A stretch of 16,935 nucleotides of DNA. Source: Streptosporangiaceae bacterium (GTDB lineage Bacteria > Actinomycetota > Actinomycetes > Streptosporangiales > Streptosporangiaceae). Positions 1,079-14,956 of this stretch are shown in pieces; the stretch's first letter is position 1, and the number at the start of each line of letters is the position of its first letter. Both the position numbers and the translations under genes were made by a program. Location of the stretch: positions 1-16,935 of the forward strand of contig JASHTQ010000641.1 of the NCBI GenBank assembly GCA_030040475.1. Reading direction: 5' to 3'. A model generated the notes under the pieces. It was not told the DNA's origin. It worked only from the letters and a program-made list of their open reading frames with translations, and did not search any database.

Positions 1079-1158
1079 GGTGGAGGGGCTCGCCGCGCAA
1101 GCACTCGCCACTTCGCGGGCGGCACCAACGCGGCACCGCCGCCAACGGTCCCTACCGG
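1079..1158 (+). promoter_or_regulatory. Fluoride (crcB)-type riboswitch, variant, before PP2C gene
   Basis: The 5' part reads GGTGGAGGGGCTCGCC and the 3' part GCCAACGGTCCCTACC. GGUG pairs with CGCC as the pseudoknot (one wobble), and AGGGGCU pairs with the 3' GGUCCCU strand as P1. A long central hairpin with GGCGG/CCGCC lies between them. The copy belongs to the variant subgroup in which the canonical GAUG and UGAUG are replaced by GGAG and CAACG. It ends 45 bases before the PP2C start. A hairpin GUU(A)AGC-GAGGA-GCUAAC would place the ribosome binding site in its loop. Confidence 0.72.
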
Positions 1159-1203
1159 ACGTACACAGCGCTGGTACGAGGACGTTAAGCGAGGAGCTAA
1201 CGA

Positions 1204-2031
1204 ATGCACACGATCAACCTGCCGCCCTCGCGCGACCACGCCGAGATCGATCTCGGCAATGGCGCCGGAGTCAGTGACCGGGGCCTGCGGCATCGCCGCA
1301 ACGAGGACGCCATGGCCCTGGCCGCTGAGATGACACCCGATGGCCCCGTGGTGGTGGCCGTGGTCTGCGACGGCGTCTCGTCCTCGCCACGGCCCGACGA
1401 GGCGTCACGCGTAGCCGCGCAGGCGGCGCTGCCGGTCCTGCTGGCGGCCGTCCGGGAGGGCAGGGACCTGATCCAGGCCTCACGGGTCGCGGTCACGGCC
1501 GGTCGTGAATCGGTGGCCCAGCTGGACGAGCCCTCGCGCGACACCTCGGCGACGACCTTCGTCTCCTCCGTGGCGGCCCCCGGCCTGATCACCTTGTGCT
1601 GGCTTGGCGACAGCCGCGCCTACTGGCTGACTCAGCCGGAATCGGAGTCCCGCCTGCTCACCCGCGACGATTCGGTAGCCGGGGGAATGGTCGAGGCAGG
1701 CCTGGTCACCGAGGCCGTGGCCATGGCCTCGCCGCACGCGCACGTGCTGACCCGCTGGCTCGGCGGAGATGCCGTGCTCGACGGGGACCCCGGGCGCGCA
1801 CCGCACGTAGAGCAGTACTCTCCGCCGGGAGCCGGGATCCTGCTGCTGTGCTCCGATGGGCTGTGGAACTACCTGCCCGAGGCCGGGGACCTGGCCAGAC
1901 TCGCCCTGCCCAAGGCGCTGAACGACCCGCTTTCCGCCGCGGTCGACATGGTGCAGTTCGCGGTCCAGGCCGGCGGCGCCGACAACATCACTGCGATCCT
2001 GATCCCATACGTCAACCCAGGCGAGCCCTGA
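1204..2031 (+). CDS. PP2C-family (PPM) serine/threonine protein phosphatase
   Basis: The 275-residue cytosolic protein shows the PPM metal-dependent phosphatase motifs in order: RRNEDA with acidic residues E34 and D35, VCDG (D56, G57), DTSATT near 113, WLGDSRAY (134-140), LCSDGLW (215-221) and GGADNIT (257-263). These supply the aspartates that hold two Mg/Mn ions for removing phosphate from Ser/Thr. The VADGMGG motif is altered to VCDGVSSS and the usual DHS is DDS, so the active-site rim is slightly divergent. The ATG at 1204 has GAGGAG seven bases upstream. The gene stands alone and its leader carries a fluoride-type riboswitch, which suggests induction by fluoride, a known inhibitor of Mg-phosphate chemistry. 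Its substrate is unknown. Confidence 0.88.
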   Translation: MHTINLPPSRDHAEIDLGNGAGVSDRGLRHRRNEDAMALAAEMTPDGPVVVAVVCDGVSSSPRPDEASRVAAQAALPVLLAAVREGRDLIQASRVAVTAGRESVAQLDEPSRDTSATTFVSSVAAPGLITLCWLGDSRAYWLTQPESESRLLTRDDSVAGGMVEAGLVTEAVAMASPHAHVLTRWLGGDAVLDGDPGRAPHVEQYSPPGAGILLLCSDGLWNYLPEAGDLARLALPKALNDPLSAAVDMVQFAVQAGGADNITAILIPYVNPGEP

Positions 2032-2061
2032 CGGGTCAGTGCTTCGGCCGGGCCGACCGCT

Positions 2062-2628
2062 TCACGGATTCGCGGATGTCCCCAGGTCGCGGGGTGTCAC
2101 GAAATGAGTCAGCCGCGCCGAACCCGGCACGATCTCCTCCCAGGTTCCGGTGAACTCAAGGACCGCGATGGCAGCGGTGGGGAACTTGGCTCGCATGCGC
2201 TCGAACACGCCAGCGGTGTCACTCACGGCACCCGTGTCGGCAAGCCGGGGTGGCGTCGCCAGCGCGAGCGCAAGTTCCGGTACCGCGGGATCATGGCCCA
2301 CGATCAGCAGGGTCCTCGCATCCGGGTATGCACCGCGGACCAGGTCAAGAAGCTGCATTGCGGACGCCTCGTATACGCGGGTGTCGAAGCTGACCGCCGG
2401 GGTCGCCTCGAGTCCGGCCTGCGCGAGCTGCCATGTTTCGCGAGCCCGGCGGGCAGTGGAGCACACGACCTGGTCCGGCACGAGACCGACCGCACGCAGC
2501 CAGCGCCCCATGACGGGCGCAGCCCTCCTGCCCCGGCGGGCCAGCGGCCTGTCGTGGTCTGGCACGTCGGGCCACGCCGATTTGGCATGCCGCAGCAGTA
2601 CCAGATGGCGACCCGCGGCGTCCGTCAT
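2062..2628 (-). CDS. SixA-like histidine phosphatase
   Basis: The 188-residue protein starts with HLVLLRHAKSAWPD, the RHxK-type histidine phosphatase motif, with the phospho-acceptor histidine at position 14. It continues with DRPLARRGRRAAP, STARRARETW and a second conserved histidine in LLIVGHDPAV, so the catalytic set looks complete. Relatives remove phosphate from phosphohistidine proteins or small phosphometabolites; the substrate here cannot be deduced. The start lies one base after the stop of the upstream Nudix gene (TGATATG), so the two are almost certainly one mRNA controlled by the riboswitch at 3581. The usual family length is 150-180 residues. Confidence 0.87.
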   Translation of the reverse strand: MTDAAGRHLVLLRHAKSAWPDVPDHDRPLARRGRRAAPVMGRWLRAVGLVPDQVVCSTARRARETWQLAQAGLEATPAVSFDTRVYEASAMQLLDLVRGAYPDARTLLIVGHDPAVPELALALATPPRLADTGAVSDTAGVFERMRAKFPTAAIAVLEFTGTWEEIVPGSARLTHFVTPRDLGTSANP

Positions 2629-2629
2629 A

Positions 2630-3547
2630 TCACGGCCGCGGGCTGCTGAAAGCCGGGTAGTAGTCTGCCGCCGCGAGCCGGCCAGCGGAGAAGAACAAGG
2701 CCCACACGCTTCCCTTCACCGCCGGATATTCCCTCATATCCAGGCCCGCTTCCTCGGCGAGGGTAGCGAGCAGGTGCCGGATCACGGCGCCGGGTGCGCA
2801 CACGGCCGTGCTACCGCCGGCGTCCGTAAGCTCAAGGATCCGGGTCAGGCCGTCCCCGGGACGGGCGGCATAGTTCGCTTCGCCGAAGACCGGCTCGGTC
2901 TCGACGGGAAGCCCGAGCTCCGCACCGAGCGGTTGCATCGTGTCCACGAAACGGGCCTCGCACGCTGAGAGCAGCCGGGACGGCCCGAAGGCGGGCAGCG
3001 TCTGGCGCAGGGCCGTGGCCTGTGCCTGTCCCTCGACGCCCAGCGGACGGTCGCCTTCGGCGCCCTCTCGTCGTCCGTTGGACACGGCGCGGGCGTTACG
3101 TACAAGCAGGACCGCCGCAGTGGGCAGGGCGGTGTTCGCGAGCGCCTCAAGCGCGTCGATCGCGTGCAGGTCGCGCCGATAGCGAAGCCGCCATCGAGCG
3201 TCAGCCATCGGCAGCCACGCCAGCCGGTCCACTTCCGCCGTGGGCGTGAACGAGCCGTCTGTGCCCTGCATCGCCCAGTACTCGACGGTCTTGGGCCCGC
3301 CGGGAGTGGCGTAGTGTCCGATGTCCAGCCGCTTCCCGGCCGTCGCCTGGATCCCGGTCTCCTCGGTCACCTCCCGGCAGGCGGTGACCACCGGATGCTC
3401 ACCACGGCGAAGCTTCCCCTTCGGCAGCGACCAATCGTCGTACCGCGGTCGGTGCACCAGTGCCACCTCAACAGCACCGCCGTCCGACGATCTCCACAAC
3501 ACCCCGCCAGCGGCCCGGATCATCGATGACGACACATTGGACTGCAC
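2630..3547 (-). CDS. MutT1-like Nudix hydrolase with degenerate histidine-phosphatase domain
   Basis: I place the start at GTG 3545-3547 because AGGAGG lies seven bases upstream; this gives 305 residues, close to mycobacterial MutT1. Residues 8-130 form a Nudix domain with an intact box (G44, E50, R58-E59, E62-E63 in REVTEETGI), which binds Mg and cleaves nucleoside polyphosphates, for example 8-oxo-dGTP or diadenosine polyphosphates. Residues from 143 on resemble a histidine phosphatase, but the expected RH motif reads LLVRNARA, with Asn151 replacing the catalytic histidine, and the later GH motif reads APGAVI. This half is therefore probably inactive. The intact SixA-like gene follows directly in the same operon and may supply the missing activity. 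A longer frame upstream overlaps the riboswitch and is not the protein. Confidence 0.87.
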   Translation of the reverse strand: MQSNVSSSMIRAAGGVLWRSSDGGAVEVALVHRPRYDDWSLPKGKLRRGEHPVVTACREVTEETGIQATAGKRLDIGHYATPGGPKTVEYWAMQGTDGSFTPTAEVDRLAWLPMADARWRLRYRRDLHAIDALEALANTALPTAAVLLVRNARAVSNGRREGAEGDRPLGVEGQAQATALRQTLPAFGPSRLLSACEARFVDTMQPLGAELGLPVETEPVFGEANYAARPGDGLTRILELTDAGGSTAVCAPGAVIRHLLATLAEEAGLDMREYPAVKGSVWALFFSAGRLAAADYYPAFSSPRP

Positions 3548-3580: not shown

Positions 3581-3658
3581 AGCAGGACCCATCGGCCGTA
3601 CGGCAAGCGAGCGCGCCAGCGGACACGGGCACGTTCCCGGCGAGATCCATCGCCGGGT
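3581..3658 (-). promoter_or_regulatory. Fluoride (crcB)-type riboswitch before MutT1-like/SixA operon
   Basis: On the minus strand the 5' part is GGCGATGGATCTCGCC, followed by GGGAACG, a variable hairpin region, and GGCCGATGGGTCCTGCT. The pseudoknot is GGCG/CGCC and P1 is GGAUCU/GGGUCC. The GAUG in both loops and the GGGAAC linker match the crcB consensus. The P1 3' strand UCCUGC (3582-3587) is also complementary to GCAGGA at 3557-3562, part of the ribosome binding site, so a competing helix can hide it when no ligand is bound. TATCGT on the minus strand (3677-3682) is a possible -10 box. Confidence 0.85.
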
Positions 3659-3731: not shown

Positions 3732-6245
3732 TCAGGCCTCGGCGTCGGCCCAGGTCTGGGTGAGCGCGGGCAGGCCGGCGAGGAGGCGGAGGGCGCCAAG
3801 ATGAGCACGCGATTCCTCCTCGGTCACCAACCCGCTGTGCAGCGCCTCGCGCTTGAGAGCGTAGGCGCGCATGTCATCGCCAGCGCGGCGCAGCGCTGCG
3901 GCCAGAGCGCGGATCATCGCCCGCCCGGTATCTGGCGGAGTGCCCTCCCCGAGCGCCAGTGCCAGGTGCCGTAGGCACAACGCCGCCGCGGCTGGCGCCT
4001 GTCCGACGGCGTCGCTGAGCGCTTCGCGTTCGCGATCGGCCAGCGCCGCGCACAGGGGGCAGGTGCCGGACTGCGGCGCAACGGCGGCCACGCGGCCGGC
4101 CAGGTCCGCGACGGTCCCTTCTCGCCTGCTGACGGAGTCCAGCGCGTCGGCCACGGCGGCGGCTAGCTTTGGGTAGCCGGCGGAAATGCCCAGCGGGGAG
4201 GCGATGGCCGCATACTGCCAGGTGTGCAGCGGGCAGAACCCGCCCGTCAGTGCGTGCCGTTCCTGGTCATCCTCGCGAGTGGCGAGGCGGAACTGGCTCC
4301 GCCGAAGGTAGTCGACAAGCGTCGCCTGCATCCGTGAGCAAACGATGCAGCTGTCAGCCGACGGGCTGGCGACCGACGGGCTGGCGACCGACGGCGGTTC
4401 AGTGTCGGCGATAACGCCGGGGTGGCGTGGCTCCGCGGCGCCCAGAGCCTCCTGGAAGTCGGCCAGCCGGGCGGCGAGGTCGTCAAGCGCCACGAGATCC
4501 TCATCGCGTGGCACTGTCTGCAGCAAGTGGCGGAAACGCTCGGCCGCCTCGCGGATCTGCCGACCAGCCAGTTCATCCAGCCTCCTGGCCCAGTCCCTCG
4601 CCGCTGCCTGGAAGGCGGCACGCGCACGTTCCTCAAATGCGACGATCGCGGCGCGGAGCGCGTCCTGTAGGTGGCGCCGAACCTCCACGTCGGCGGTATC
4701 GGCCTTGCGGCGGGACCGCCTCGGCATCTGCACCGGGACCGCCCACTCTGGGACCGTGACCGCGAGACCGGGAAGGTCTTCTGATGACCAGCCTGCCGCC
4801 TCGCGACGGTCATCGACACAAGCCAGGTCGGCCATCCCGGCGCCAATTACGCCGGGCGAGCGCGACATCTCAAGCAACTCGCCGATCTCGCCGGCCGCCA
4901 AGCCGGTGAGCAGTTCGTGCGCCTCACCCACCCGTCGGTGCAGCCAGCCACCGACGACGTCACGCCCGGCTTCCTCGAGCTTGCTCTGGGCGTCCGCTAG
5001 GACGCTGCGGACGGTGCCGTCGCCGACGGCGCCCAGTGCTTCGTCGGCGCGCGGCTCGATCAGCTCCCGCAAACCCGTCTGCCAGGCAGGGCTCCGAGCG
5101 GCGAGCAACTGCGGCAAGCCGGTGTCGACTCGGTCGGCGATCGTGCCCGCCGCGGCGCTGAGCTGCCTGCCGAGTTCGGCCATGCGCGTGTCGAAGGCGG
5201 CGAGCACCGCTGAAGGGTCGGGCCCGCCGTCAAGGCGGAGCCGACCGAGCCGCAGGTCACGCCGCTGGCCGGAAACGAGCCGGGCGGCGCGGTCGGCGAT
5301 ATTGCCAAGGAACACACGCGTCTTGCCCGTGGTCAGGAACTCATCCAACGTGGCGCGAAGCTGCTCCACACCGCTGCCCGACAATCGCCCGCTATCTCCT
5401 TGGACGACCGCCTCCAGCGCGTCGCGTGCCGACAAGGCGAACAAGCGGGGCTCGTCGATTCCCAGGTCATCGCGCAAGCGGCGGCGGACGAACTCCATCG
5501 CCGCCGCGACGTCATTGCCGGAGACCAGGTCGCGCTTGTTGAGCACGAGGAACAACCGGCCGACATGCCTGGCCGCGTCGGCCAGGAAATCGACCTCGGC
5601 CTCGGTCAGCGGCGAGTCCAAGCCGGTAACGAATATCACCGCGTCCGCCTCGGGCAGGAACTGCCTGGTGGTCGCGGTGTTGATCTCGATCGCCGACCCG
5701 ACACCTGGAGTGTCGACGAACTCGAACCCGAGCCGCAGGATCTCCGCAGGGATCTCGACCTGGACCGACACCACCTGCAGCTCCGCGCGCCTGGCGCTGG
5801 CCTGCGCCACGAAGCCGGCCACCTCGGTCAGCGGCACCTCCACGGGCAGCGGCGATGCCCGGCGGTGCACGGTCGCGCGGGGCCTGCTGCCGAACCGGAC
5901 CGTGGTGATCACCGAGGTCATCGGCAGCGCGCCCATCGGCAGGTAGGGGCCGCCGAGCAGCGCGTTCATCAGCGTGGTCTTCCCCCGGCTGAACTGGCCC
6001 ACGACGGCGAGCTTGAACGTGTCGGCGGCCAGCCGCGCCAGCAGTTCCCTCGCCCGCTTCTCGGCCAGCTGATCCTCGGACGCGCGCGCCACGTACAGCG
6101 CCGCCCGGATCATGTCGCCGAGCTCGAGACGGCGGTCCCGGTAGGTCCTCAGCCCGTTCAGCCGTCCGCCGGGCGCTGCCGACTCCGCCGGGCCGGGCTG
6201 GCGCGGATCAGGATCGGCGGGTTCGGGCGACGGTGCTGACGGCAT
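3732..6245 (-). CDS. Dynamin-like GTPase with two C-terminal CxxC/CxxH zinc-binding-like motifs
   Basis: The start is ATG 6243-6245, preceded by GGAGG and placed just after a riboswitch; this gives 837 residues. A GTPase domain of the bacterial dynamin type is complete: P-loop GQFSRGKT (83-90), a Thr-rich switch region around LPMTSVITT, DTPG (178-181) and NKRD (236-239). The middle is long, charged and helical, as in dynamin stalks. The C-terminal 207 residues hold two cysteine/histidine sets, C633-C636 with C671-H674 and C729-C732 with C757-H760, each CxxC then CxxH, resembling DUF6062-like proteins and probably binding two zinc ions. No membrane helix is visible. Such GTPases reshape or repair membranes, which is inferred here. 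A 15-bp tandem repeat (4358-4395) encodes the PSVAS linker before the first cysteine pair. Confidence 0.83.
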   Translation of the reverse strand: MPSAPSPEPADPDPRQPGPAESAAPGGRLNGLRTYRDRRLELGDMIRAALYVARASEDQLAEKRARELLARLAADTFKLAVVGQFSRGKTTLMNALLGGPYLPMGALPMTSVITTVRFGSRPRATVHRRASPLPVEVPLTEVAGFVAQASARRAELQVVSVQVEIPAEILRLGFEFVDTPGVGSAIEINTATTRQFLPEADAVIFVTGLDSPLTEAEVDFLADAARHVGRLFLVLNKRDLVSGNDVAAAMEFVRRRLRDDLGIDEPRLFALSARDALEAVVQGDSGRLSGSGVEQLRATLDEFLTTGKTRVFLGNIADRAARLVSGQRRDLRLGRLRLDGGPDPSAVLAAFDTRMAELGRQLSAAAGTIADRVDTGLPQLLAARSPAWQTGLRELIEPRADEALGAVGDGTVRSVLADAQSKLEEAGRDVVGGWLHRRVGEAHELLTGLAAGEIGELLEMSRSPGVIGAGMADLACVDDRREAAGWSSEDLPGLAVTVPEWAVPVQMPRRSRRKADTADVEVRRHLQDALRAAIVAFEERARAAFQAAARDWARRLDELAGRQIREAAERFRHLLQTVPRDEDLVALDDLAARLADFQEALGAAEPRHPGVIADTEPPSVASPSVASPSADSCIVCSRMQATLVDYLRRSQFRLATREDDQERHALTGGFCPLHTWQYAAIASPLGISAGYPKLAAAVADALDSVSRREGTVADLAGRVAAVAPQSGTCPLCAALADREREALSDAVGQAPAAAALCLRHLALALGEGTPPDTGRAMIRALAAALRRAGDDMRAYALKREALHSGLVTEEESRAHLGALRLLAGLPALTQTWADAEA
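4358..4395. repeat. 15-bp in-frame tandem repeat inside the GTPase gene
   Basis: Two full units of CCGACGGGCTGGCGA (4358-4372 and 4373-4387) and a partial third encode a repeated PSVAS linker on the minus strand. The repeat sits between the helical middle and the zinc-binding-like C terminus and is in frame, so changes in copy number would only alter linker length. Confidence 0.75.
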
Positions 6246-6261: not shown

Positions 6262-6323
6262 GGCCAGGGACCGTCAGCGGGCCGCGCACGCGGCCGCGAA
6301 ACCAGGGTGAGCCCCATCACCCA
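6262..6323 (-). promoter_or_regulatory. Fluoride (crcB)-type riboswitch before dynamin-like GTPase gene
   Basis: The minus strand reads GGGTGATGGGGCTCACCC, then a GC-rich hairpin (GCGGCCGCG/CGCGGCC), then GCTGACGGTCCCTGGCC. The pseudoknot GGUG/CACC is a compensated version of the GGCG/CGCC seen in other copies. P1 is GGGGCU/GGUCCC. GAUG and GCUGA are kept, so this copy is close to canonical. The ribosome binding site lies in the hairpin CGACC-CGGA-GGTCG (6247-6260). CACAAT at 6333-6338 on the minus strand is a weak -10 candidate. Confidence 0.87.
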
Positions 6324-7218
6324 TGCCCATCCATTGTGCCAGAGCCTCGCTGCCGCGTCCCGGCTGGCCGCCGCCGCGAACCAACCCGGATTCGGCCCTG
6401 GTCCGCGGGCGCGGGCGAGTGCCGCGAACCACCTCTCGTTCGGCCGAATTCTGTTGAACATCCGCGGCGGCGGCGGGTCGGCGGATCGCCCAGCTCAGCC
6501 GGCCCGGCGGCTGCCTGTCGCGTCGCCAGCCTGGTAGCGTGGACGCGGGCGGAGGGGCCCGCCGTCGAGTGCAGCAGTGCCAACGGTCCCTGTCGGAGGA
6601 CAGGAGGAGGCATGCATGCGCATGAATGTCAACAACGGCGAGGTAATCCCCAGAGCCGAGCGTGTCCTGTACCTCACCCAGTGGCGGGTATGGGAAGAGG
6701 CGGTGCTGGCCAGGCTGGCCCTTACCCGCGGCCTGGCCGCCGCGCCGCTGCTGCCGGCTTCCGACGCGATCTACCTGGTGACCTACGACGGAGAGCACCT
6801 GGGCCACGTACGGCGAGAGGGACCGCGCACACGCGGTGAACGCTGGGTGGCGGTGCCCCTGATGCAGATGCCGCTGGCGGGCTACCACCACAGCGCCGAG
6901 GCCGCGGCGCAAGCCCTGGCCCGTGCCTGCGGCAGGGCATAAGGACCGGCCGGGGCCGATGTTCCTCAGCTCGGGGGACAGCAGGTCCGCCAGCCTGCTG
7001 CAGGGCCAGGGGGCACGCCTGGCTTCGGTCTGTTCCGGCGTCTCGTCCATGACCGCCAGGTAGTCGTCCGGCCCGCTCCAGCGCGGGCACGCGGCGTGCA
7101 GCGGGCACGGGCTGCGCGGCGGCTTGCCCTGTGCCCGGCAGGCCGGCCTCGGACCCGAGCGGTAGGTCATCAGCGCCCGCCACAGCAGCAGCACCTCGTC
7201 GTCGGTCACCTTCGCCAT
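6274..7218 (-). CDS. Cysteine-rich small protein of unknown function; 3' end uncertain
   Basis: The ATG at 7216-7218 has GGGAGG five bases upstream and follows a riboswitch. The first 91 codons, down to about 6946, read like protein: MAKVTDDEVLLLWRALMTY, then four cysteines in PAC, SPCPLHAAC and a later PWPC, then LADLLSPELRNIGPG. The cysteines and histidine could bind a metal. No family is recognised. No stop appears until 6274, but the frame beyond 6946 runs antisense through the convergent 108-residue gene and both leaders and looks random. The true protein may therefore be about 90 residues, with the stop lost by a frameshift or sequence error, or the long tail may be translated. The start is more certain than the end. 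Confidence 0.4.
   Translation of the reverse strand: MAKVTDDEVLLLWRALMTYRSGPRPACRAQGKPPRSPCPLHAACPRWSGPDDYLAVMDETPEQTEARRAPWPCSRLADLLSPELRNIGPGRSLCPAAGTGQGLRRGLGAVVVARQRHLHQGHRHPAFTACARSLSPYVAQVLSVVGHQVDRVGSRQQRRGGQAAGKGQPGQHRLFPYPPLGEVQDTLGSGDYLAVVDIHAHACLLLSSDRDRWHCCTRRRAPPPASTLPGWRRDRQPPGRLSWAIRRPAAAADVQQNSAEREVVRGTRPRPRTRAESGLVRGGGQPGRGSEALAQWMGMGDGAHPGFAAACAAR
6535..6540 (+). promoter_or_regulatory. Putative -10 box (TAGCGT)
   Basis: TAGCGT lies seven bases before the first paired base of the structured leader at 6548, so transcription would begin almost exactly at the riboswitch. No convincing -35 box is visible. Confidence 0.35.
6548..6594 (+). promoter_or_regulatory. Fluoride-type riboswitch, compact variant, before 108-residue gene
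   Basis: GGCGGAGGGGCCCGCC is followed after 16 bases by GCCAACGGTCCCTGTC. The pseudoknot is GGCG/CGCC and P1 is AGGGGCC/GGUCCCU. The P1 3' strand CCUGUC (6589-6594) is complementary to GACAGG (6599-6604), which abuts the AGGAGG ribosome binding site, with a GGAG loop. The two pairings exclude each other, giving a translational switch. The loop bases are of the GGAG/CAACG variant type. Confidence 0.72.
6616..6942 (+). CDS. Riboswitch-controlled small protein of unknown function
   Basis: The 108-residue protein starts MRMNVNNGEVIPRAERVLYL; AGGAGG ends five to six bases before this ATG. Codon use is strongly G/C at third positions, which supports a real gene. I recognise no family. Visible segments are an aromatic N-terminal helix (LYLTQWRVWEEAVL), a probable beta pair (AIYLVTYDGEHLGHVRRE), a WVAVPL strand and an Ala-rich C-terminal helix. 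No signal peptide, membrane segment or metal motif is seen. The fold pattern suggests a small alpha/beta domain. It is directly controlled by a fluoride-type riboswitch. A convergent gene on the other strand has an open frame that continues across it; this strand is the better one in the shared region. Confidence 0.72.
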   Translation: MRMNVNNGEVIPRAERVLYLTQWRVWEEAVLARLALTRGLAAAPLLPASDAIYLVTYDGEHLGHVRREGPRTRGERWVAVPLMQMPLAGYHHSAEAAAQALARACGRA

Positions 7219-8403: not shown

Positions 8404-8883
8404 TCAGCTGGCACCGTCGGCGACCGCGGTACCGCGCGGACGCCACAGATTGCCCAGGTAGGCAGCGGTACGCGCGCGGCCGGCGTGCAGGCCGCGCAGG
8501 TGCCCGGCCACCGGCGGGCGCAGATCGATCTCGTGCAGCAGGTCGAGCGGGACGAATGCGGCGAAGAGGTTATTTTCCCCCGACTTGAGCAGCTGCCCTG
8601 GCACCGACGGGGTGGCGAGGAAGACAAGGTCCACCGTGTGCAGCCCGGCACGCGGCCCACTGCTTTCGACGACGAACGCGATCCTGGTGGCCTCGACCGC
8701 CAGCCCGGTCTCCTCCAGCGTTTCCCGCCGGGCACAGCTGGCCATGCTCTCGCCCTGCCGCGGCGTGCCTCCTGGCAGCACCCAGTCGTCGCCGCCGTCA
8801 CGGGCCCGGCGGACCAGGAGAACCTTGTGGTCACGGAAGACCACGGCCGAGCAGCGCACGTCGGCGACAGCGGGCTGGTCCAT
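8404..8883 (-). CDS. Nudix hydrolase
   Basis: The 159-residue protein has a full Nudix box, G-x5-E-x7-REXXEEXG, in GGTPRQGESMASCARRETLEETGL, which binds Mg and splits a nucleoside diphosphate linked to another group. It starts MDQPAVADVRCSAVVFRDHK, with a typical strand before the box. The ATG at 8881-8883 has AAGGGG six bases upstream. The substrate cannot be told from sequence. Unlike its neighbours it has no riboswitch-like leader; instead a 24-bp tandem repeat lies directly upstream. It is a single-domain enzyme, unlike the MutT1-like protein at 2630-3547. Confidence 0.87.
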   Translation of the reverse strand: MDQPAVADVRCSAVVFRDHKVLLVRRARDGGDDWVLPGGTPRQGESMASCARRETLEETGLAVEATRIAFVVESSGPRAGLHTVDLVFLATPSVPGQLLKSGENNLFAAFVPLDLLHEIDLRPPVAGHLRGLHAGRARTAAYLGNLWRPRGTAVADGAS

Positions 8884-8990: not shown

Positions 8991-9692
8991 TCAGGTCGCC
9001 TCGCGCCCGCTGGGATCAACGCCGACATCGATGCTGGGTCTGATGCCGGGATCGATGCTGGGACCGGTGCCGGGACCGGTGCCGGGATCGGTCAGGCGGA
9101 GCCATCCCTCGGCGAACAGCCAGCCGGCGATCACGTCGGCGGGCCAGTGCACGCCCAGGTAGACGCGGCTGGTCCCGACGATGGCCGCGGCCAGCAGCGG
9201 CCATGCCCGGTCGGCCGCGCCGGGCCGGCTGGAGGCACTGGAGCCTCTGGAGGCGCTGGAGGCGCGCATGCCGGCGCCGATCGCCAACGCGGCGAGGGTG
9301 GTGTGCTTGGACGGCAGGCTGAATCCCTCGGGCACGGTCAGCCAGGCTTCCTCCGGCGGGCGCGGCCTCGCGATCACCCGCGACAGCCTGCGCCTGGCGA
9401 AGGCTCCGCTCGCCACCACCAGGCACGGCGCACATGCCCGCCACCAGCCGATCCGCGGCGCCGCGGCGACGCCGGCGGCGCCGAGCAGCGGGTAGACCAC
9501 CTCGGGCTCGGCGAGGGAGCTGACCGCGTGGGCGACCACGATGCCCGCCCGGCTCCGGCGCGCCCTGACGATCTCGAACGCGGCCCGGTCGGCGCGCGCG
9601 AAGCGGTTCTCGCCGCCGATCCGCCAGGCGAGCAGCGCCAGGGCTGCGAACGCCGCCGCGCCGGCAAGCCGCCTGGCCGGCATCAGCGCCAT
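8991..9692 (-). CDS. PAP2-family membrane phosphatase
   Basis: The protein (233 residues from ATG 9692, or 230 from ATG 9683) contains the three phosphatase motifs of the type 2 phosphatidic acid phosphatase family: R-x6-RP in RLSRVIARP, PSKH (usually PSGH) and SRVYLGVHWPAD. The second motif carries a Gly-to-Lys change. Several hydrophobic helices surround them, so it sits in the membrane, with lipid phosphates or undecaprenyl diphosphate as typical substrates. The start overlaps the end of the upstream 118-residue gene (TGATG for ATG 9683), so it is translationally coupled and lies in the riboswitch-controlled operon. The loop before motif 3 and the C terminus carry short in-frame tandem repeats, giving Ser-rich and Pro-Gly-Thr-rich stretches. 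Confidence 0.83.
   Translation of the reverse strand: MALMPARRLAGAAAFAALALLAWRIGGENRFARADRAAFEIVRARRSRAGIVVAHAVSSLAEPEVVYPLLGAAGVAAAPRIGWWRACAPCLVVASGAFARRRLSRVIARPRPPEEAWLTVPEGFSLPSKHTTLAALAIGAGMRASSASRGSSASSRPGAADRAWPLLAAAIVGTSRVYLGVHWPADVIAGWLFAEGWLRLTDPGTGPGTGPSIDPGIRPSIDVGVDPSGREAT
9042..9092. repeat. 12-bp tandem repeats in the PAP2 gene tail
   Basis: About four units of a 12-bp motif close to GATGCCGGGATC or GGTGCCGGGACC encode the DPGTGPGTGPSIDPG-like tail. A second simple repeat of 9 bp (CTGGAGGCG type, four units around 9231-9266) encodes a Ser-rich loop in the same gene. Both are in frame. Confidence 0.6.
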
Positions 9693-10039
9693 GCGCTGTC
9701 GGCCTGCCGTGCGGCCTCGCGCGCCAGGTACGGCATCACGACAACCAGGGCAGTTTCCGCCGAACCGTAGTGGCTGGCGCCGACCCACAGCCGGTAACTC
9801 TCCGGCCGCCCGGTATGGTCCCGCAGCCGGGCCGCGGCGGAGCGGGCCGGCGCCGCGTACGCGGGCACGCCGGCCTCGTAAAGGAGGGCGAGCAACGCCG
9901 ACACGATCCGCTGACTGACCTCGAGGACCGGGGCCCACGCCTCGTCGTCCAGGCCGTTGCCGTAGCCGCCCGGCGGCAGCCACCACAGTCGCCCGGGCCG
10001 CCCGGCCTGCGGCAAGGGCCGTGACACTGATGCCGACAT
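9683..10039 (-). CDS. Riboswitch-controlled 118-residue protein of unknown function
   Basis: The protein starts MSASVSRPLPQAGRPG and continues with LWWLPPGGYGNGLDDEAW, an amphipathic helix (EVSQRIVSALLALLYEAGV), a strand-like YRLWVGASHYGSAETALVVVMPYL and a basic C terminus. I recognise no family; it looks like a small alpha/beta domain and has no signal peptide. GGGAGG lies nine bases before the ATG. It is the first gene after a fluoride-type riboswitch and is coupled to the PAP2 gene downstream (overlap at 9683-9692). A role linked to lipid phosphate turnover or to fluoride stress is possible but only inferred from context. Confidence 0.75.
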   Translation of the reverse strand: MSASVSRPLPQAGRPGRLWWLPPGGYGNGLDDEAWAPVLEVSQRIVSALLALLYEAGVPAYAAPARSAAARLRDHTGRPESYRLWVGASHYGSAETALVVVMPYLAREAARQADSAWR

Positions 10040-10065
10040 TCGGTCCTACCTCCCGCGTTCGGAGA

Positions 10066-10138
10066 GCAGGACCCATCGGCCATCCGGCAGATCTGCGCGG
10101 CTCGATGCCCGCGCAGACCCAGCGGGGTCCACCGCCGG
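10066..10138 (-). promoter_or_regulatory. Fluoride (crcB)-type riboswitch before 118-residue gene and PAP2
   Basis: The minus strand reads GGCGGTGGACCCCGCT, then a perfect 9-bp hairpin UCUGCGCGG/CCGCGCAGA, then GGCCGATGGGTCCTGC. P1 is GGACCC/GGGUCC, perfectly compensated relative to the copy at 3581. The pseudoknot is GGCG/CGCU with a wobble. The P1 3' strand GGUCCU pairs alternatively with AGGACC at 10042-10047, closing a hairpin that contains the GGGAGG ribosome binding site. Confidence 0.8.
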
Positions 10139-11067: not shown

Positions 11068-11075
11068 GGAGACAT

Positions 11076-11136
11076 CACGCGATGAGGCTCGCGTAAACAC
11101 CCGGATCCTCATTTCGGGCTGATGGCCTCTACCTGT
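11076..11136 (+). promoter_or_regulatory. Canonical fluoride (crcB) riboswitch before DUF3040 gene
   Basis: CGCGATGAGGCTCGCG is followed by TAAACACCCG, a short loop, CGGGCTGATGGCCTCTACC. All landmarks of the crcB motif are present: pseudoknot CGCG/CGCG, GAUG, the AAAC linker, P3 CCCG/CGGG, GCUGAUG, and P1 GAGGCU/GGCCUC followed by UACC. It is nearly identical to the well-studied Thermotoga petrophila aptamer as I remember it. The pseudoknot differs from the GGCG/CGCC of other copies by a compensated pair. The P1 3' strand GGCCUC can also pair with GAGGCC around 11165-11171. Confidence 0.94.
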
Positions 11137-11270
11137 TTCGGCGTCATGGATGCTGCGCGCAGGCGGAGGCCTTCGTGGTGATGTGGGGTTCCGGGCAGGT
11201 CAATCGGGCCAGCCGTGCTCCATGGCGCCGTAACCGATCAAGGTCACGGCGGCGCGATGGAGGAAGCGTC

Positions 11271-11723
11271 ATGAGCCTCAGTGCATGGGAGCAGCAGGCC
11301 CTGGATTCGATCAGGGACGAGCTTACCGGCTCAGATCCCGGGCTGACCCAGCTGCTGGCCAGCTTCACCGAACTGGCGACCGGCGAGGAGATGCCGGCGC
11401 TGGAGAAGGTGCGGACGGGCCTGCGGCGGCCCACGTATCGTCCGCACCGAAGGCAGCGCTCTCGCCGAGGCCTCGCCAGCCGGATCGTACGCGCGATGTG
11501 GCAGCGCCTGGGATTCCGGTGGATGGCGCTGCTGCTGTGGGTGACGATAACGGCCGGACTGATCGCGGTCGGGGTGGCCCTGAGCGCCGGCGGCGGCCAG
11601 GCGGGCAGGTGCACGACGGCGTGGCCGGTGGTCTGCGCCAACCCGGTGCCCGCAACTAGCTCACCTCCGGCCACGCATGACCGCAGCGGCGGCCAGACGC
11701 CGCCGCTCGTCCCGGCCGGCTAA
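11271..11723 (+). CDS. DUF3040 membrane protein
   Basis: The 150-residue protein starts MSLSAWEQQALDSIRDEL, the typical N terminus of DUF3040 proteins (a short amphipathic region followed by a membrane segment). GGAGGA precedes the ATG at 11271. A basic stretch (RPHRRQRSRRGL) comes before one strong hydrophobic helix, WMALLLWVTITAGLIAVGVA (about residues 84-103), followed by a Pro/Ser/Thr-rich tail with two cysteines. The function of the family is unknown. The gene is 135 bases downstream of the canonical fluoride riboswitch, a longer leader than for the other genes. It ends 10 bases before the convergent enolase gene. Confidence 0.82.
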   Translation: MSLSAWEQQALDSIRDELTGSDPGLTQLLASFTELATGEEMPALEKVRTGLRRPTYRPHRRQRSRRGLASRIVRAMWQRLGFRWMALLLWVTITAGLIAVGVALSAGGGQAGRCTTAWPVVCANPVPATSSPPATHDRSGGQTPPLVPAG

Positions 11724-11733
11724 CGCGATCCCG

Positions 11734-13005
11734 TCATGGCATTCCGTACCGCAGGCCGGGGTTGGCCGCGGCGATCTCCAGCAGCCGGTTGTACTTGGCG
11801 ACCCGCTCACCGCGGGCCGGTGCGCCGGACTTCAGGTGCCCGCAGCCGGTGCCGACCGCCAGGTCGGCGATGAACGTGTCGTCCGTCTCCCCCGACCGGT
11901 GGGAGACGAACTGGCGATACCCGGCCGCGCGGCAGATCGCCATCGCCTCAAGCGTCTCGGTCACCGTGCCGATCTGGTTCAGCTTGATCAGCGACGCGTT
12001 GCCGATGCCACGGTCGATTGCCCTGGCGATGATGGCCGGGTTGGTACAGAAGATGTCGTCGCCGACAAGCTCGGTCGTGGTGCCGAGCCGCTGCGTGAGC
12101 GCGATCCAGCCGTCCTCGTCGTCCTCGCCGAGACCGTCCTCGATCAGGTGCACGGGGAACCGCTGCGTGATGGCGGCGTACCTGTCGATCATCTGCCCGC
12201 TGTCCAGCGCTTCCCCGGCCACCCGGTAAGCGCCGCCGGGCTGGCGGAACTCCGAGGCCGCCGGGTCAAGCGCGATCGACACCCCCTGGGCGCCTGCCTG
12301 GTAACCCGCGTCCCCGATCGCCTGCACCAGCAGGCCGAGCACCTCCTCGGGCTCGGTGACCTCGGGGGCAAACCCGCCCTCGTCACCCAGCCCGGTCGAC
12401 AGCTTGCGGTCGGCCAGCTGGCGGCGCAGCGCAGCGTAGACCTCTGCCCCTGCCCGGACCGCCTCGGCCAGCGACGGCGCGCCCACCGGGGCGATCATGA
12501 ATTCCTGGAAGTCCAGGGCGTTCGGTGCGTGCACGCCGCCGTTGAGCACGTTGAAGTGCGGCACGGGCAGCGACGGCGGCACGCCGTCCGGGACGAGCGA
12601 CCGCCACAGCGGGACCTCCGCCGCGGCCGCCAGAGCGCGGGCCAGCGCCATCGAGACCCCTACCGTCGCGTTCGCGCCGAGCCTGCTCTTGTTCGCGGTG
12701 CCGTCGAGCTCGATCATCGCCCGGTCCACCTCGGCCAGCGAGGCCCAGGGCCGGGAGCGCAGCAGCGCGTCGATCTCCGTGTTCACCGCCGCTGCCGCGC
12801 CGAGCACGCCCCGGCCCTCGTACCTGGCCTTGTCGCCGTCCCGGCGTTCCACGGCTTCCCTGGAGCCGGTGGAGGCGCCGGACGGCACCCCGGCACTGGC
12901 CGTGGTCCCGTCGCCCAGCCGGGCGGTGACCGCCAGCGTGGGCCGCCCGCGTGAGTCCAGGATCTCCAGCGCGGACACGGCCGCGACATCAAAGCCCGCC
13001 ATCAT
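11734..13005 (-). CDS. eno: Enolase (phosphopyruvate hydratase), last gene of the ppa operon
   Basis: The 423-residue enzyme converts 2-phosphoglycerate to phosphoenolpyruvate. It has DSRGRPT, GASTGSREAVERRDGD, NVLNGGVHAPNALDFQEFM, GLGDEGGFAP, LIEDGLGEDD, VGDDIFCTN, LIKLNQIGTVTET, SHRSGETDD and HLKSGAPARGERVAKYN, so the metal ligands and catalytic lysine are present. Several motifs differ from the housekeeping form (HADN is HAPN, GASTGEHE is GASTGSRE, QIKTGAPSR is HLKSGAPAR), which suggests a second, specialised enolase. The ATG at 13005 overlaps the stop of the MFS gene (ATGA). Enolase is classically inhibited by fluoride with phosphate and Mg, which fits its place behind a fluoride riboswitch. 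A longer frame upstream is inside the MFS gene. Confidence 0.93.
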   Translation of the reverse strand: MMAGFDVAAVSALEILDSRGRPTLAVTARLGDGTTASAGVPSGASTGSREAVERRDGDKARYEGRGVLGAAAAVNTEIDALLRSRPWASLAEVDRAMIELDGTANKSRLGANATVGVSMALARALAAAAEVPLWRSLVPDGVPPSLPVPHFNVLNGGVHAPNALDFQEFMIAPVGAPSLAEAVRAGAEVYAALRRQLADRKLSTGLGDEGGFAPEVTEPEEVLGLLVQAIGDAGYQAGAQGVSIALDPAASEFRQPGGAYRVAGEALDSGQMIDRYAAITQRFPVHLIEDGLGEDDEDGWIALTQRLGTTTELVGDDIFCTNPAIIARAIDRGIGNASLIKLNQIGTVTETLEAMAICRAAGYRQFVSHRSGETDDTFIADLAVGTGCGHLKSGAPARGERVAKYNRLLEIAAANPGLRYGMP

Positions 13006-14237
13006 GGTTCCTCTCCTGTCATGGCAGCCGCCCTCGGCCGCCCCTTTCGTTGCTGTTTCTGGCGCACGATCCAGATCAGCGGGATCGCGGCCAGCTCGCA
13101 GGCCATGCAGAACGCGACGAGGCCGGCGACCGAGACGACGGCCAGAATGCCGATCACGACGCTTCCGGCCACCCAGGCCGTTCCGTATATGCCGGTGAAC
13201 AGGCCGTACGCGGAGGCGCGCCGATCCGCGGCGACCATCGGCGCCACCGCCGCCGGGATCAGCGATTCCTGCACGCCCATGCCCAGGCCCCACAGCGCCG
13301 CCCCGGCCAGGATTGTCCAGAACCCGCCGAGGAACACCAGCGGTGCGTACACCGCCGTGACGATCGTCAGCGGGATCAGCACGCCGATCCCGGCGCGGTC
13401 GAAGACCTTACCCAGGACCAGCGACCCGGTCCCGCTGACCGCCATCGCGACCGCGTAGAACACCGGCGTCAGCACCGGGGACACCTTCCCCGCATCCTGG
13501 AAGTGGTAGGCGATCAGCGGGAAGTCGGCGAACCCGGCGGCGGCCAGCGCCGCGCCGGCCGCGTAGATCCAGAACACCCGGGGCAGCCCGTGCGTGCTCA
13601 CCTGCGCCGGAGCGGACGCCAGGTCCTGCGGGCGTGGATACACCACGCGCGCGACCGCAAGCAGCGACAGCATGATCGCGGCCGGCGCCGCCAGCGCCGC
13701 GAACGCCACCCTGTAGTCGTGGTGGCCGACCGCGAGCACCAGCGCGACAAGCAGCGGGCCGAACATCGCGCCGAACTGGTCCAGCGCCTCGTGGATCCCG
13801 AACGCCCGCCCGTAGCCGATGTCCTTGGCGGCATGGGAGAGCATCGCGTCCCGCGGCGGGTTTCTGATGCCTTTCCCGATCCGCTCGGCGATGATCAGCA
13901 CCGCGGCCCACTGCCAGCTCCCGGCCAGGGCCAGCAGCGGCACCACCGCCATCTGCAAGATGTAGCCGCCGATCGTGATCGGCCAGTACTTGCCGGTCCG
14001 ATCCGAGCTTCGCCCGGAGAACAGCCGGATGTTGTACCCGATGAACTCCCCGGCGCCGCTGACCACGCTGATCGTGAACGCGCCCGCCCCGAGCAGCCCG
14101 AGGTACGGGCCGGTGATGCTGCGCGAGCCCTCGTAGGTGAAGTCCGCGAAGAAGCTCATGACCCCCACCATGAGCACGAACTTCATCGCCGGAGAGGCGT
14201 TCCTAGCGGCCCTGAGGGCACGCGCCGGTGCGCTCAC
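13002..14237 (-). CDS. MFS transporter in the pyrophosphatase-enolase operon
   Basis: The 411-residue protein has about 12 hydrophobic helices and MFS landmarks: GRSSDRTGKYWPITIGG (the loop 2-3 motif), ERIGKGIRNPPRDAMLSHA after helix 4, and a long central loop. The start is GTG 14235-14237, overlapping the stop of the 37-residue gene by four bases. The substrate is unknown. Its place between pyrophosphatase and enolase, both fluoride targets, and behind a fluoride riboswitch makes it a candidate for moving fluoride or a fluorinated or phosphate compound. No CrcB or CLC-F gene is visible here to do that job. The conserved Arg-Asn-Pro-Pro-Arg segment is typical of its subfamily, not of a characterised exporter I can name. 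Confidence 0.86.
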   Translation of the reverse strand: MSAPARALRAARNASPAMKFVLMVGVMSFFADFTYEGSRSITGPYLGLLGAGAFTISVVSGAGEFIGYNIRLFSGRSSDRTGKYWPITIGGYILQMAVVPLLALAGSWQWAAVLIIAERIGKGIRNPPRDAMLSHAAKDIGYGRAFGIHEALDQFGAMFGPLLVALVLAVGHHDYRVAFAALAAPAAIMLSLLAVARVVYPRPQDLASAPAQVSTHGLPRVFWIYAAGAALAAAGFADFPLIAYHFQDAGKVSPVLTPVFYAVAMAVSGTGSLVLGKVFDRAGIGVLIPLTIVTAVYAPLVFLGGFWTILAGAALWGLGMGVQESLIPAAVAPMVAADRRASAYGLFTGIYGTAWVAGSVVIGILAVVSVAGLVAFCMACELAAIPLIWIVRQKQQRKGRPRAAAMTGEEP

Positions 14238-14347
14238 CTGCGCTTGATGCCGCCGGGATACGTCCGCACGATCCAGCCGCCCTGCCCGGGCTTGAACAGC
14301 GGGGCCGCGGCGATGCCGCGGGCGCGCAGGGCGTCAGCGGCGTGCAT
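14234..14347 (-). CDS. 37-residue protein between pyrophosphatase and MFS genes
   Basis: A short frame starts at ATG 14345-14347 inside the last codons of the pyrophosphatase gene and ends at TGA 14234-14236, overlapping the GTG start of the MFS gene by four bases. It reads MHAADALRARGIAAAPLFK followed by a Gly/Trp/Arg/Tyr-rich tail ending IKRR. The tight overlap at both ends and the use of the whole gap argue for a real gene. It is basic and has no membrane helix. It may be a small partner of the transporter, or may only couple translation. No homologue is known to me. Confidence 0.5.
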   Translation of the reverse strand: MHAADALRARGIAAAPLFKPGQGGWIVRTYPGGIKRR

Positions 14348-14891
14348 CGCCGCTACCCGAGCCGTGCGGCCGACCCCGAAAGGGGCGATCCGGAGGGGAC
14401 ACCTCGGACGCCGGGCGGGAGGCGCGGGCGCGGGCCGCGTCGATGACCTGTTCGGCGCTGACCCGGTCCTGCCAGCCGCGGACGTCGGTGCTCTTGCCCG
14501 GTTCCAGCTCCTTGTAGATGTCGAAGAAGTGCGCGATCTCCGCGATCAGATGAGGCGGCACGTCGGCGAGGTCCCGTACGGCGCCGAACCGCTGGTCGCG
14601 GGCGGGGACGGTGAGGATCTTGGCGTCGGGCCCGTTCTCGTCGGCCATCCAGAACACCGCCACCGGCCGGGCCAGGACGTAGCAGCCAGGAAAGGTCGGC
14701 TCGTCCAGCATGACCATGGCGTCGAGAGGGTCGCCGTCCTCGGCGAGCGTGTCCGGGATGAACCCGTAGTCCAGCGGATAGCGGGTTGAGGTGAACAGCA
14801 TCCGGTCCAGGCGGATCTGGCCGGAAGCGTGATCCAGCTCGTACTTGTTCCGCGAGCCTTGCGGTATCTCGACTACTACCTCGACGTCCAC
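14334..14891 (-). CDS. ppa: Inorganic pyrophosphatase, first gene of a fluoride-controlled operon
   Basis: The 185-residue cytosolic enzyme splits pyrophosphate into two phosphates. It has the family I signature DGDPLDAMV (52-60) with three metal-binding aspartates, plus E9, SRNKYEL (13-19), DYGFIP (41-46), DENGPDAKI around 84-92 and IYKELEPGK (125-133). The core is complete; a tail of about 35 low-complexity residues rich in Arg, Pro and Gly is extra. The start is GTG 14889-14891 with GGGAAGGG upstream. Family I pyrophosphatase is a textbook fluoride-sensitive enzyme. The gene heads a run with overlapping junctions (37-residue gene, MFS, enolase). Whether another housekeeping ppa exists elsewhere is not known. 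Confidence 0.94.
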   Translation of the reverse strand: MDVEVVVEIPQGSRNKYELDHASGQIRLDRMLFTSTRYPLDYGFIPDTLAEDGDPLDAMVMLDEPTFPGCYVLARPVAVFWMADENGPDAKILTVPARDQRFGAVRDLADVPPHLIAEIAHFFDIYKELEPGKSTDVRGWQDRVSAEQVIDAARARASRPASEVSPPDRPFRGRPHGSGSGDARR

Positions 14892-14910
14892 GGTGCCCTT
14901 CCCTGCTCAT

Positions 14911-14956
14911 CCAGGGACCGTTGGCACCAGCGCGTTTTCGGGCGAGCCCCTCCGCC
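14911..14956 (-). promoter_or_regulatory. Fluoride-type riboswitch, variant, before the ppa operon
   Basis: On the minus strand GGCGGAGGGGCTCGCC is followed by CGAAAACGCGCTGG and TGCCAACGGTCCCTGG. Pseudoknot and P1 form as in the other variant copies, and an AAAAC linker is kept. The P1 3' strand UCCCUG pairs alternatively with CAGGGA (14900-14905), which is part of the ppa ribosome binding site. Ligand binding would free the site. Confidence 0.75.

What the first reader, a model, noticed from the sequence alone, without database searches (positions are those of the whole stretch)
1079..14956. Nine fluoride-type riboswitches in 14 kb: a fluoride regulon island
The same aptamer architecture occurs nine times, each upstream of a gene on its strand. 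One copy (11076) matches the crcB motif almost perfectly and one at 6262 nearly so. The copies show compensated pairs in the pseudoknot (GGCG/CGCC, GGUG/CACC, CGCG/CGCG) and in P1 (GGACCC/GGGUCC versus GAGGCU/GGCCUC versus GGGGCC/GGUCCC). Genomes normally carry one or a few such RNAs. The controlled genes include known fluoride targets (pyrophosphatase, enolase) and other Mg-phosphate enzymes. This suggests a fluoride-response island based on replacing or reinforcing sensitive enzymes.
Basis: partly seen in the sequence, partly recalled or inferred. Interest (0 to 1): 0.95.

Follow-up and report, generated by a model that had tools for sequence, protein, structure and literature searches.

The report
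Island of nine fluoride RNA switches
This stretch of actinobacterial DNA carries nine RNA elements built like the fluoride riboswitch, most of them in a sequence form that the standard RNA library does not recognise, and together they likely switch on spare enzymes and other defences when toxic fluoride enters the cell.

Summary
An architecture scan finds exactly the nine copies (mean 0.65, at most 3, in 40 shuffles), and models built without any window sequence recover all nine. Rfam passes none at its cut-off and sees only the 11076 copy. The copies are homologous to the fluoride aptamer: pseudoknot and A40-U48 pair are kept, while the reversed Watson-Crick pair A6-U38 is G6-C38 in six of nine. 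Over 134 distinct best matches this pair is A-U 83, G-C 48, G-U 1; 3 of 183 copies in the wider set break it. The G-C form is fluoride-linked: 56 of 394 actinomycete genomes (seed included) carry it, and of the 30 best loci 24 have the fluoride channel gene crcB directly downstream. Similar islands exist elsewhere (one genome: 17 elements in 40 kb), with crcB, MutS, NUDIX, Usp and a separate enolase clade. The window's genes (pyrophosphatase, enolase, phosphatases, dynamin-like GTPase, transporters) fit. Best reading: a fluoride-response island of mostly translational ON switches. Fluoride binding is inferred, not measured.

The parts
1079..1153 (+). c1: fluoride-riboswitch-like aptamer, G6-C38 form (GAG/CAACG), long P2 arm
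   Evidence: E 5e-7 with no window row in the profile; R1 40.3 bits; not among the rows R1 was built from
1204..2031 (+). PP2C-type protein phosphatase behind c1
   Evidence: Pfam PF13672 6.8e-11; start 50 nt past U48
3584..3654 (-). c2: aptamer, AUG/CGAUG form (A6-C38, the one window copy without a complementary 6-38 pair), with an inserted arm before P2
   Evidence: R3 52.7 bits, E 1.6e-12, no window row in the model
2630..3547 (-). NUDIX plus histidine-phosphatase protein (MutT1-like) behind c2
   Evidence: Pfam, NF052459 1.1e-77 but below its cut-off
2062..2628 (-). SixA-like histidine phosphatase, same strand behind the previous gene
   Evidence: PF00300 7.4e-9; TIGR00249 2.3e-11, below cut-off
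6266..6321 (-). c3: aptamer, A6-U38 form (AUG/UGACG)
   Evidence: profile of 35 relatives, E 1.1e-5; R2 45.7 bits (row was in R2)
3732..6245 (-). dynamin-like GTPase behind c3
   Evidence: PF00350 9.2e-24 (on the longer frame to 6461); a dynamin-like cluster lies downstream of 17 of 180 copies, the window's included
6548..6591 (+). c4: aptamer, GAG/CAACG
   Evidence: E 2.5e-9
6616..6942 (+). 108-aa protein of unknown family behind c4
   Evidence: no Pfam match; homologs behind 2 further copies (cluster 19)
7251..7298 (-). c5: aptamer, GAG/CAACG; divergent from c6, 5' ends 106 bp apart
   Evidence: (E 2.4e-10)
6274..7218 (-). reading frame behind c5; its second half lies antisense to the c4 gene, so its true end is unsure
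7404..7448 (+). c6: aptamer, GAG/CAACG; followed by a GC hairpin and T6
   Evidence: (E 7.9e-12)
7714..8352 (+). acetate-transporter family protein (SatP/YaaH) behind c6
   Evidence: PF01184 1.3e-35, NF038013 above cut-off; homologs behind 4 further copies (cluster 15)
10068..10136 (-). c7: aptamer, GUG/CGAUG (G6-C38) with an inserted arm
   Evidence: R3 54.3 bits, E 5.9e-13, no window row in the model
9683..10039 (-). 118-aa protein of unknown family behind c7, with homologs behind 5 further copies
   Evidence: cluster 12; no Pfam match
8991..10076 (-). open frame that holds a PAP2 phosphatase in its second half (true start probably near 9690)
   Evidence: PF01569 1.6e-11, residues 218-327 of 361
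8404..8883 (-). NUDIX hydrolase, same strand
   Evidence: PF00293 8e-18
11078..11130 (+). c8: aptamer, canonical A6-U38 form (AUG/UGAUG)
   Evidence: RF01734 31.2 bits, cut-off 34; (E 4.6e-10)
11175..11723 (+). 182-aa protein behind c8, GTG start, no family over cut-off
14913..14956 (-). c9: aptamer, GAG/CAACG
   Evidence: E 3.9e-10
14334..14891 (-). inorganic pyrophosphatase, first gene behind c9
   Evidence: PF00719 2.3e-56
13002..14237 (-). MFS transporter behind the pyrophosphatase
   Evidence: PF07690 4.6e-24
11734..13005 (-). enolase of the island clade, overlapping the end of the MFS gene
   Evidence: TIGR01060 3.6e-149, above cut-off; tree

Best explanation
The window is likely part of a fluoride-response island of an actinomycete, with nine homologs of the fluoride riboswitch aptamer in front of nine transcription units, where they are predicted to act as fluoride-sensing ON switches. 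Each RNA is predicted to fold a hairpin (P1) whose loop pairs with a downstream strand to make a pseudoknot; by homology this would hold three magnesium ions around one fluoride ion. Without fluoride the 3' pseudoknot strand is predicted to pair instead with the Shine-Dalgarno region just downstream; fluoride would lock the pseudoknot, free that region and start translation (inferred, and supported across relatives rather than copy by copy). Six of the nine carry G6-C38 in place of A6-U38, the reversed Watson-Crick pair of the known aptamer, a swap that keeps the pair; relatives of this form lead crcB/FluC. The controlled genes would supply a second enolase and pyrophosphatase, phosphatases and nucleotide-pool hydrolases, and transporters (product functions by family; fluoride tolerance untested).
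For: Nine copies against 0.65 by chance and recovery by models without window rows. R2, trained only on A6-U38 copies, also finds G6-C38 copies (e.g. 30.6 bits at L024). On the best 150 of its 198 matches (134 distinct) the named structure is paired in 97.1% of cells against 87.8% in shuffles, and 6-38 is AU 83, GC 48, GU 1, unpaired 0. A40 and U48 accompany all five main classes even when the scan does not ask for them. crcB directly downstream of the G6-C38 form: 24 of the 30 best loci (67 matches in all) from 394 genomes, 12 of 24 crcB places in 18 genomes chosen for having the form, and pFRL5, where R1 scores 53.2 bits 57 nt before an annotated crcB. RF01734 is the only Rfam family listed for these crcB leaders (7 of 20 loci at E up to 0.5, none over cut-off). 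The island enolases form their own clade with support 100/100. A TAnnnT box starts 13-22 nt before P1 in 108 of 183 copies (5 of the 9 in the window), against 9 of 183 in a control interval and 8.3 on average, 16 at most, in 100 shuffles. Locking the 3' pseudoknot strand opens the Shine-Dalgarno site by >0.3 in 33 and closes it in 1 of the 90 qualifying copies of the five main classes; a control lock opens 3 of 56 against 21 of 56.
Against: No fluoride binding or induction has been measured for any copy, and none reaches Rfam's cut-off. The GAG form also changes U7 to A and U41 to C beside the ion site. c2 has A6-C38, not a complementary pair; in the wider set 3 of 183 copies lack complementarity there, and the count leaves out the 48 weakest matches, c2 among them. 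In single window copies the folding model shows a large Shine-Dalgarno opening only for c8 (0.01 to 0.69); the other eight change little, and only c5 beats all 30 shuffles for the alternative helix (32% of 181 copies do so overall). The GUG/CGAUG class shows no opening (5 copies). T5 runs, though rare (7 of 183), exceed the control interval (1), so some copies may terminate transcription. The window holds no crcB, and in four Streptosporangiaceae MAGs (G002, G004, G005, G006) no element was found before crcB. The window's own genome is not held.
Confidence: 0.87

Rival explanations
1. The G6-C38 copies are a fluoride-aptamer derivative that has shifted to another small ligand (another anion or a metal ion), and only the A6-U38 copies sense fluoride.
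For: Letters next to the ion site differ (U7A, U41C in the GAG form). Classes prefer different genes: crcB 18 to 0, NADHdh-like 1 to 15, MutS 2 to 13 (G6-C38 to A6-U38). Variant riboswitches with altered ligands are known (PMC7266159, passages read).
Against: The G6-C38 form is the one that leads the fluoride channel gene crcB (24 of the 30 best loci), shares enolase and pyrophosphatase with known fluoride regulons, and sits in the same islands as copies that Rfam calls fluoride riboswitches. In print, fluoride contacts magnesium and backbone phosphates, not bases (PMC8752731, passages).
Confidence: 0.06
2. The copies are repeated DNA, for example a mobile inverted repeat, that only resembles the aptamer.
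For: Nine similar short elements in 14 kb; divergent pairs are common in the loci read (23 pairs with 5' ends under 300 bp apart).
Against: Arms, loops and P2 length vary while pairs are kept by changes on both sides (10 of 15 pairs); position is fixed relative to a promoter-like box and a start codon; downstream gene families recur across genomes.
Confidence: 0.02
3. Fluoride aptamers, but the switch works mainly at transcription (termination) or in both directions, some copies being OFF switches.
For: c6 is followed by a GC hairpin and T6, and 7 of 183 copies have T5 within 70 nt against 1 in a control interval. In published crcB RNAs terminators overlap the motif in many cases (PMC2864571, passages; transcriptional examples in PMC11077080, passages).
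Against: 176 of 183 copies have no T5 within 70 nt; in the five main classes 33 of 90 copies open and 1 closes the Shine-Dalgarno site on pseudoknot locking.
Confidence: 0.12

Closest known systems
Fluoride riboswitch, crcB motif, RF01734
   Same: P1 hairpin with 8-nt loop, P2, H-type pseudoknot of 6 pairs, G8, A40, U48; same kinds of genes in the islands (crcB, eno, ppa, mutS, NADHdh-like membrane genes, usp)
   Different: No window copy passes the gathering score; A6-U38 is swapped for G6-C38 in 6 of 9; U7A and U41C in the GAG form; inserted arm before P2 in c2 and c7
Fluoride-resistance operon on genomic island GI3 of Enterobacter cloacae FRM (PMC5533749, passages read)
   Same: An island with crcB, enolase, pyrophosphatase, phosphoglycerate mutase and Usp, induced by fluoride
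   Different: One riboswitch for one six-gene operon there; nine elements for about nine units here, plus dynamin-like, PP2C, PAP2, NUDIX and SatP genes
Fluoride regulation in Streptomyces cattleya (called extensive in PMC11139923, passage read; the primary paper PMC5818262 is not held)
   Same: An actinomycete with riboswitch-based fluoride regulation
   Different: Whether its elements are clustered or of the G6-C38 form could not be read here

Membership tests
Fluoride riboswitch (RF01734) | P1 with 8-nt loop, P2, six-pair pseudoknot | tested here: met
   9 of 9 window copies for P1 and pseudoknot; P2 by models and alignment; pair counts on relatives
Fluoride riboswitch (RF01734) | Score at or above the curated cut-off | tested here: not met
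   0 of 9; c8 31.2 of 34 bits. Relatives in 15 island loci: 0 of 24 GAG/CAACG and 16 of 26 AUG/UGAUG copies pass
Fluoride riboswitch (RF01734) | Linchpin pair A40-U48 | tested here: met
   9 of 9 (required by the scan); present in all five main classes in a scan that did not ask for it
Fluoride riboswitch (RF01734) | Reversed Watson-Crick pair A6-U38 | tested here: not met
   A-U in 2 of 9, G-C in 6 of 9, A-C in 1 of 9. The pair is kept by covariation in relatives (180 of 183), so the letters fail but the contact is likely preserved
Fluoride riboswitch (RF01734) | Leader of fluoride-defence genes | tested here: met
   crcB behind the G6-C38 form in 24 of the 30 best loci; eno and ppa in the window
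Fluoride riboswitch (RF01734) | Binds fluoride with magnesium and changes expression | not testable with these tools
   needs in-line probing and reporter assays

The most novel reading that the evidence does not exclude
Actinomycetes have split the fluoride riboswitch into sequence subclasses by a tRNA-Levitt-like swap of its reversed Watson-Crick pair (A6-U38 to G6-C38), and islands deploy several subclasses side by side, each preferring its own genes, so that one ion drives a staged programme with different fluoride thresholds: export first, then spare glycolytic enzymes, repair and metabolic rerouting.
Probability: 0.3. Interest if true: 0.88.

Novelty: new variant of a known kind. Interest (0 to 1): 0.74.

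Why it matters
A textbook riboswitch turns out to have a subclass that the standard model misses: 56 of 394 actinomycete genomes (the seed included) match it at E 1e-6, mostly in front of the fluoride channel gene where read. A review puts about 15% of Fluc channels under riboswitch control (PMC11139923, passage); this subclass could raise that share. The natural G-C for A-U swap is a comparative test of a tertiary pair known from a crystal structure. Islands with about 20 elements in a genome (19 places in G009, 20 in G008, overlaps merged by hand) give a rare case of one ion wired by RNA to many genes, and a list of new candidate fluoride-defence genes (island enolase, MFS transporter, dynamin-like GTPase, PP2C, PAP2, NUDIX).

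Tried and rejected
Rfam at E up to 10 also listed sul1 and rpfG RNAs; both are far below cut-off and inside coding genes, rejected. The pattern scan also hit four non-actinobacterial records (Asticcacaulis, Azospirillum, Methanoregula, Nitrospira: L015, L037, L047, L062) and one Acidobacteria MAG (L024); the first four look like chance, the fifth like a real copy or a mis-binned contig; not followed. Viral contigs gave no match. My gene caller mislabelled several frames and was dropped in favour of clustering all downstream frames, whose cluster names rest on one Pfam-scanned representative each, on membership of an annotated window protein, or on reading the sequence; cluster 8 is probably a wrong frame. 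The alternative-helix test copy by copy was weak for single window copies and is told as such. In the neighbour search, in-frame window queries for PP2C, the NUDIX/histidine-phosphatase protein, the dynamin-like protein, the 6616, 15089 and FtsX frames found no locus with 40% coverage at E 1e-10; my queries for PAP2 (8991-9690) and for the 7219 frame were out of frame, so their zero hits mean nothing. The first enolase tree used an out-of-frame query and is void; one search replaces it (one of the 33 loci tried, L074, gave no enolase). Mycobacterium branderi plasmid (L176): two hits of a looser letter scan, one with the full six-pair pseudoknot, both rejected as chance because neither covariance model matches them.

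Literature: I saw passages only, never a whole paper. No paper describing a G6-C38 fluoride riboswitch form or such islands turned up in the listings of searches of an open-licence library; two primary papers of 2012 (PMC4140402, PMC5818262) are not held, so absence from print is not shown.
Full report
WHAT IS THERE. The window is high-GC DNA without tRNAs; its closest protein relatives found here are actinobacterial. Rfam reports nothing at its gathering scores and, with E up to 10, one Fluoride match at 11069-11138(+), 31.2 bits against a cut-off of 34. Nothing in that scan fixes positions 6, 7, 38, 39 or 41.

INDEPENDENT RECOVERY. Because some window copies entered models R1 and R2, I rebuilt profiles without them: 74 relatives of the GAG class find c1, c4, c5, c6 and c9; 35 relatives of the AUG classes find c8 and c3. 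Model R3, from 11 relatives and no window row, finds c7 at 54.3 and c2 at 52.7 bits; its next best window match scores 21.2 and is c6.

RELATIVES. One exact pattern of the GAG form hit 70 stretches of a collection of 84,980 species genomes, 65 of them in records titled as actinobacterial by my reading of the titles; 0 in viral contigs. In these 70 stretches (532 kb) the scan found five recurring letter classes. With the loci held there are 183 distinct copies in classes: GAG/CAACG 90, AUG/UGAUG 46, AUG/UGACG 17, GUG/CAACG 15, GUG/CGAUG 9, others 6; a further 32 scan hits fell outside the classes and were dropped as background. Dropping the A40 and U48 conditions gives 2548 hits, in which the same five classes lead, all with A40 and U48.

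COVARIATION. R2, trained on A6-U38 copies only and without the pseudoknot or the 6-38 pair in its structure, was run on 74 sources (the window and 73 loci) and gave 198 matches; the best 150 (134 distinct, window rows among them) were counted. Standard pairs fill 97.1% of cells against 87.8% after shuffling and at most 57.1% when partners are slid; 188 cells change on both sides against 46.6. The pair 6-38 is A-U 83, G-C 48, G-U 1, unpaired 0. The 48 weakest matches, which include c2 and a second AUG/CGAUG copy, were not counted. In the scan set, where 6 and 38 are free, 187 of all 215 hits are G-C or A-U; of the 183 in classes (chosen by me on these letters) 180 are, and 3 are A-C or C-C. [quoted passage not shown] The exchange A-U to G-C in a reversed Watson-Crick pair is the one known from the Levitt pair of tRNA (recalled, no call). 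The window has 2 A-U, 6 G-C and 1 A-C.

LIGAND. No binding was measured. The case for fluoride is genetic. (a) In 394 genomes drawn evenly from the class of G015, R1 matches 56, the seed included, at E 1e-6, with 67 matches in all. I read the 30 best-scoring loci, one of them from the seed: 24 have CrcB directly downstream on the same strand, at 3-362 nt by the start of the alignment; 3 could not be parsed but hold CrcB hits, 2 end at a contig end, and the seed locus has another gene. The other 37 matches were not read. An earlier phylum draw of 296 gave 5 genomes, 4 of them not the seed; in all 4 crcB follows. These 4 genomes are also in the draw of 394 and among its 24. (b) In 18 genomes chosen for carrying the GAG form, 24 crcB places have a G6-C38 element upstream in 12, an A6-U38 element within 0.7 kb in 4 (three of them with only five of six pseudoknot pairs in my scan), none found in 8, among them four Streptosporangiaceae MAGs (grouped by hand). 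(c) Annotated plasmids: pFRL5 has R1 at 53.2 bits 57 nt before crcB; a Rhodococcus qingshengii plasmid has the form before eno, before MutS and before a metallophosphoesterase (the last inside an annotated hypothetical gene), and an A6-U38 element at the start of its crcB pair. (d) On 20 of the crcB-type loci Rfam lists only RF01734, at 20.5-22.5 bits in 7, none over cut-off.

ISLANDS. R1, RF01734 and R3 hits taken together give 19 places in the Streptacidiphilus sp. 4-A2 genome (G009), 17 of them between 6,707,644 and 6,747,824, and 20 in Streptantibioticus parmotrematis (G008) on four contigs (overlaps merged by hand; some places are below RF01734's cut-off). Other genomes show clusters on one contig. 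In 15 island loci RF01734 passes its cut-off for 16 of 26 AUG/UGAUG, 2 of 6 AUG/UGACG, 1 of 1 AUG/UAACG, 0 of 24 GAG/CAACG, 0 of 9 GUG/CAACG, 0 of 3 GUG/CGAUG and 0 of 1 CUG/CGAUG copies; 7 further RF01734 hits lie outside my classes. Among 180 copies, recurring downstream families are CrcB 18, dynamin-like 17, NADH-dehydrogenase-like 16, MutS 15, HTH 11, NUDIX 10, ABC-F 9, DUF190 8, pyrophosphatase 8, enolase 7 and smaller groups. G6-C38 and A6-U38 copies differ in genes: crcB 18 to 0, NADHdh 1 to 15, MutS 2 to 13; pyrophosphatase does not differ, 4 to 4 (copies are related, so the p values are indicative, and most loci were chosen by a G6-C38 pattern).

THE ENZYMES. Enolase_C matches fall in two sets by profile coverage. 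A tree of 33 rows puts the window enolase with 14 island enolases apart from the other 18 rows, each side with support 100/100. By coverage and place 14 of 18 genomes have an island-type gene; 11 of these also show an intact housekeeping-type gene, G009 only fragments, and two MAGs none. The usual active-site motifs are present (judged by eye from recalled motifs). Pyrophosphatase is doubled less often: 9 of 18 genomes have two or more matches. Known fluoride operons carry enolase and pyrophosphatase (PMC5533749, PMC11139923, passages).

HOW IT WORKS. A TAnnnT box starts 13-22 nt before P1 in 108 of 183 copies against 9 of 183 at -45 to -35 and 8.3 on average, 16 at most, in 100 letter shuffles of the same stretches; 5 of the 9 window copies have it by eye. 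So transcripts likely begin at the aptamer. All nine window copies have a Shine-Dalgarno-like site and a start 20-50 nt after U48. Of 183 copies, 94 have such a site with a frame of at least 100 codons; the five main classes hold 90 of these, and there locking the 3' pseudoknot strand opens the site by >0.3 in 33 and closes it in 1. Locking other segments opens 3 of 56, the pseudoknot strand 21 of 56. Overall the best helix between the 3' pseudoknot strand and the leader scores 18.4 against 13.7 in shuffles, and 32% of 181 copies beat all 30 shuffles. In the window only c8 shows a large opening and only c5 beats all shuffles. T5 runs are few, 7 of 183, but above the 1 in a control interval. 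Translational ON control is therefore the best general model; c6, with a hairpin and T6, may differ.

VERDICT. A new variant form of a known riboswitch, in an island arrangement. Shown: the elements, homology, covariation, positions, gene links. Inferred: fluoride binding, switching direction, the advantage of the second enzymes. Speculative: graded thresholds among subclasses.

Noticed in passing
window 11734-13005 (-) and genomes G001-G018: The island enolase belongs to a clade separate from the housekeeping enolase (support 100/100); related enolases at 55-69% identity sit on plasmids of Rhodococcus, Streptomyces, Pantoea and others (best 25 of 326 records seen).
   Followed up: partly
window 13002-14237 (-): An MFS transporter lies between pyrophosphatase and enolase, and MFS genes recur beside eno and crcB in islands and plasmids; it could be a further fluoride-related transporter.
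   Followed up: no
window 7298-7404: c5 and c6 form a divergent pair with 5' ends 106 bp apart; 23 such pairs under 300 bp exist in the loci read, which suggests shared bidirectional promoter regions.
   Followed up: partly
window 6274-7218 (-) against 6616-6942 (+): The frame behind c5 runs antisense over the c4 gene; one of the two ends is probably not real.
   Followed up: no
window 15022-15110: Short direct repeats around 'ttagctgctcgg' at the downstream end of the frame at 15089-15682 (-), seen by eye in the sequence.
   Followed up: no
window 406-813 (-): A protein with a borderline ASCH domain match with no riboswitch-like copy in front of it.
   Followed up: no
L071-L073 (G009): The island enolase of this assembly appears split over frames, as in an error-prone assembly; described only.
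   Followed up: no
L001:2282-3220 (+): A protein with weak HTH matches represents a cluster found downstream of 11 copies, mostly GAG form; a possible regulator in the islands.
   Followed up: no
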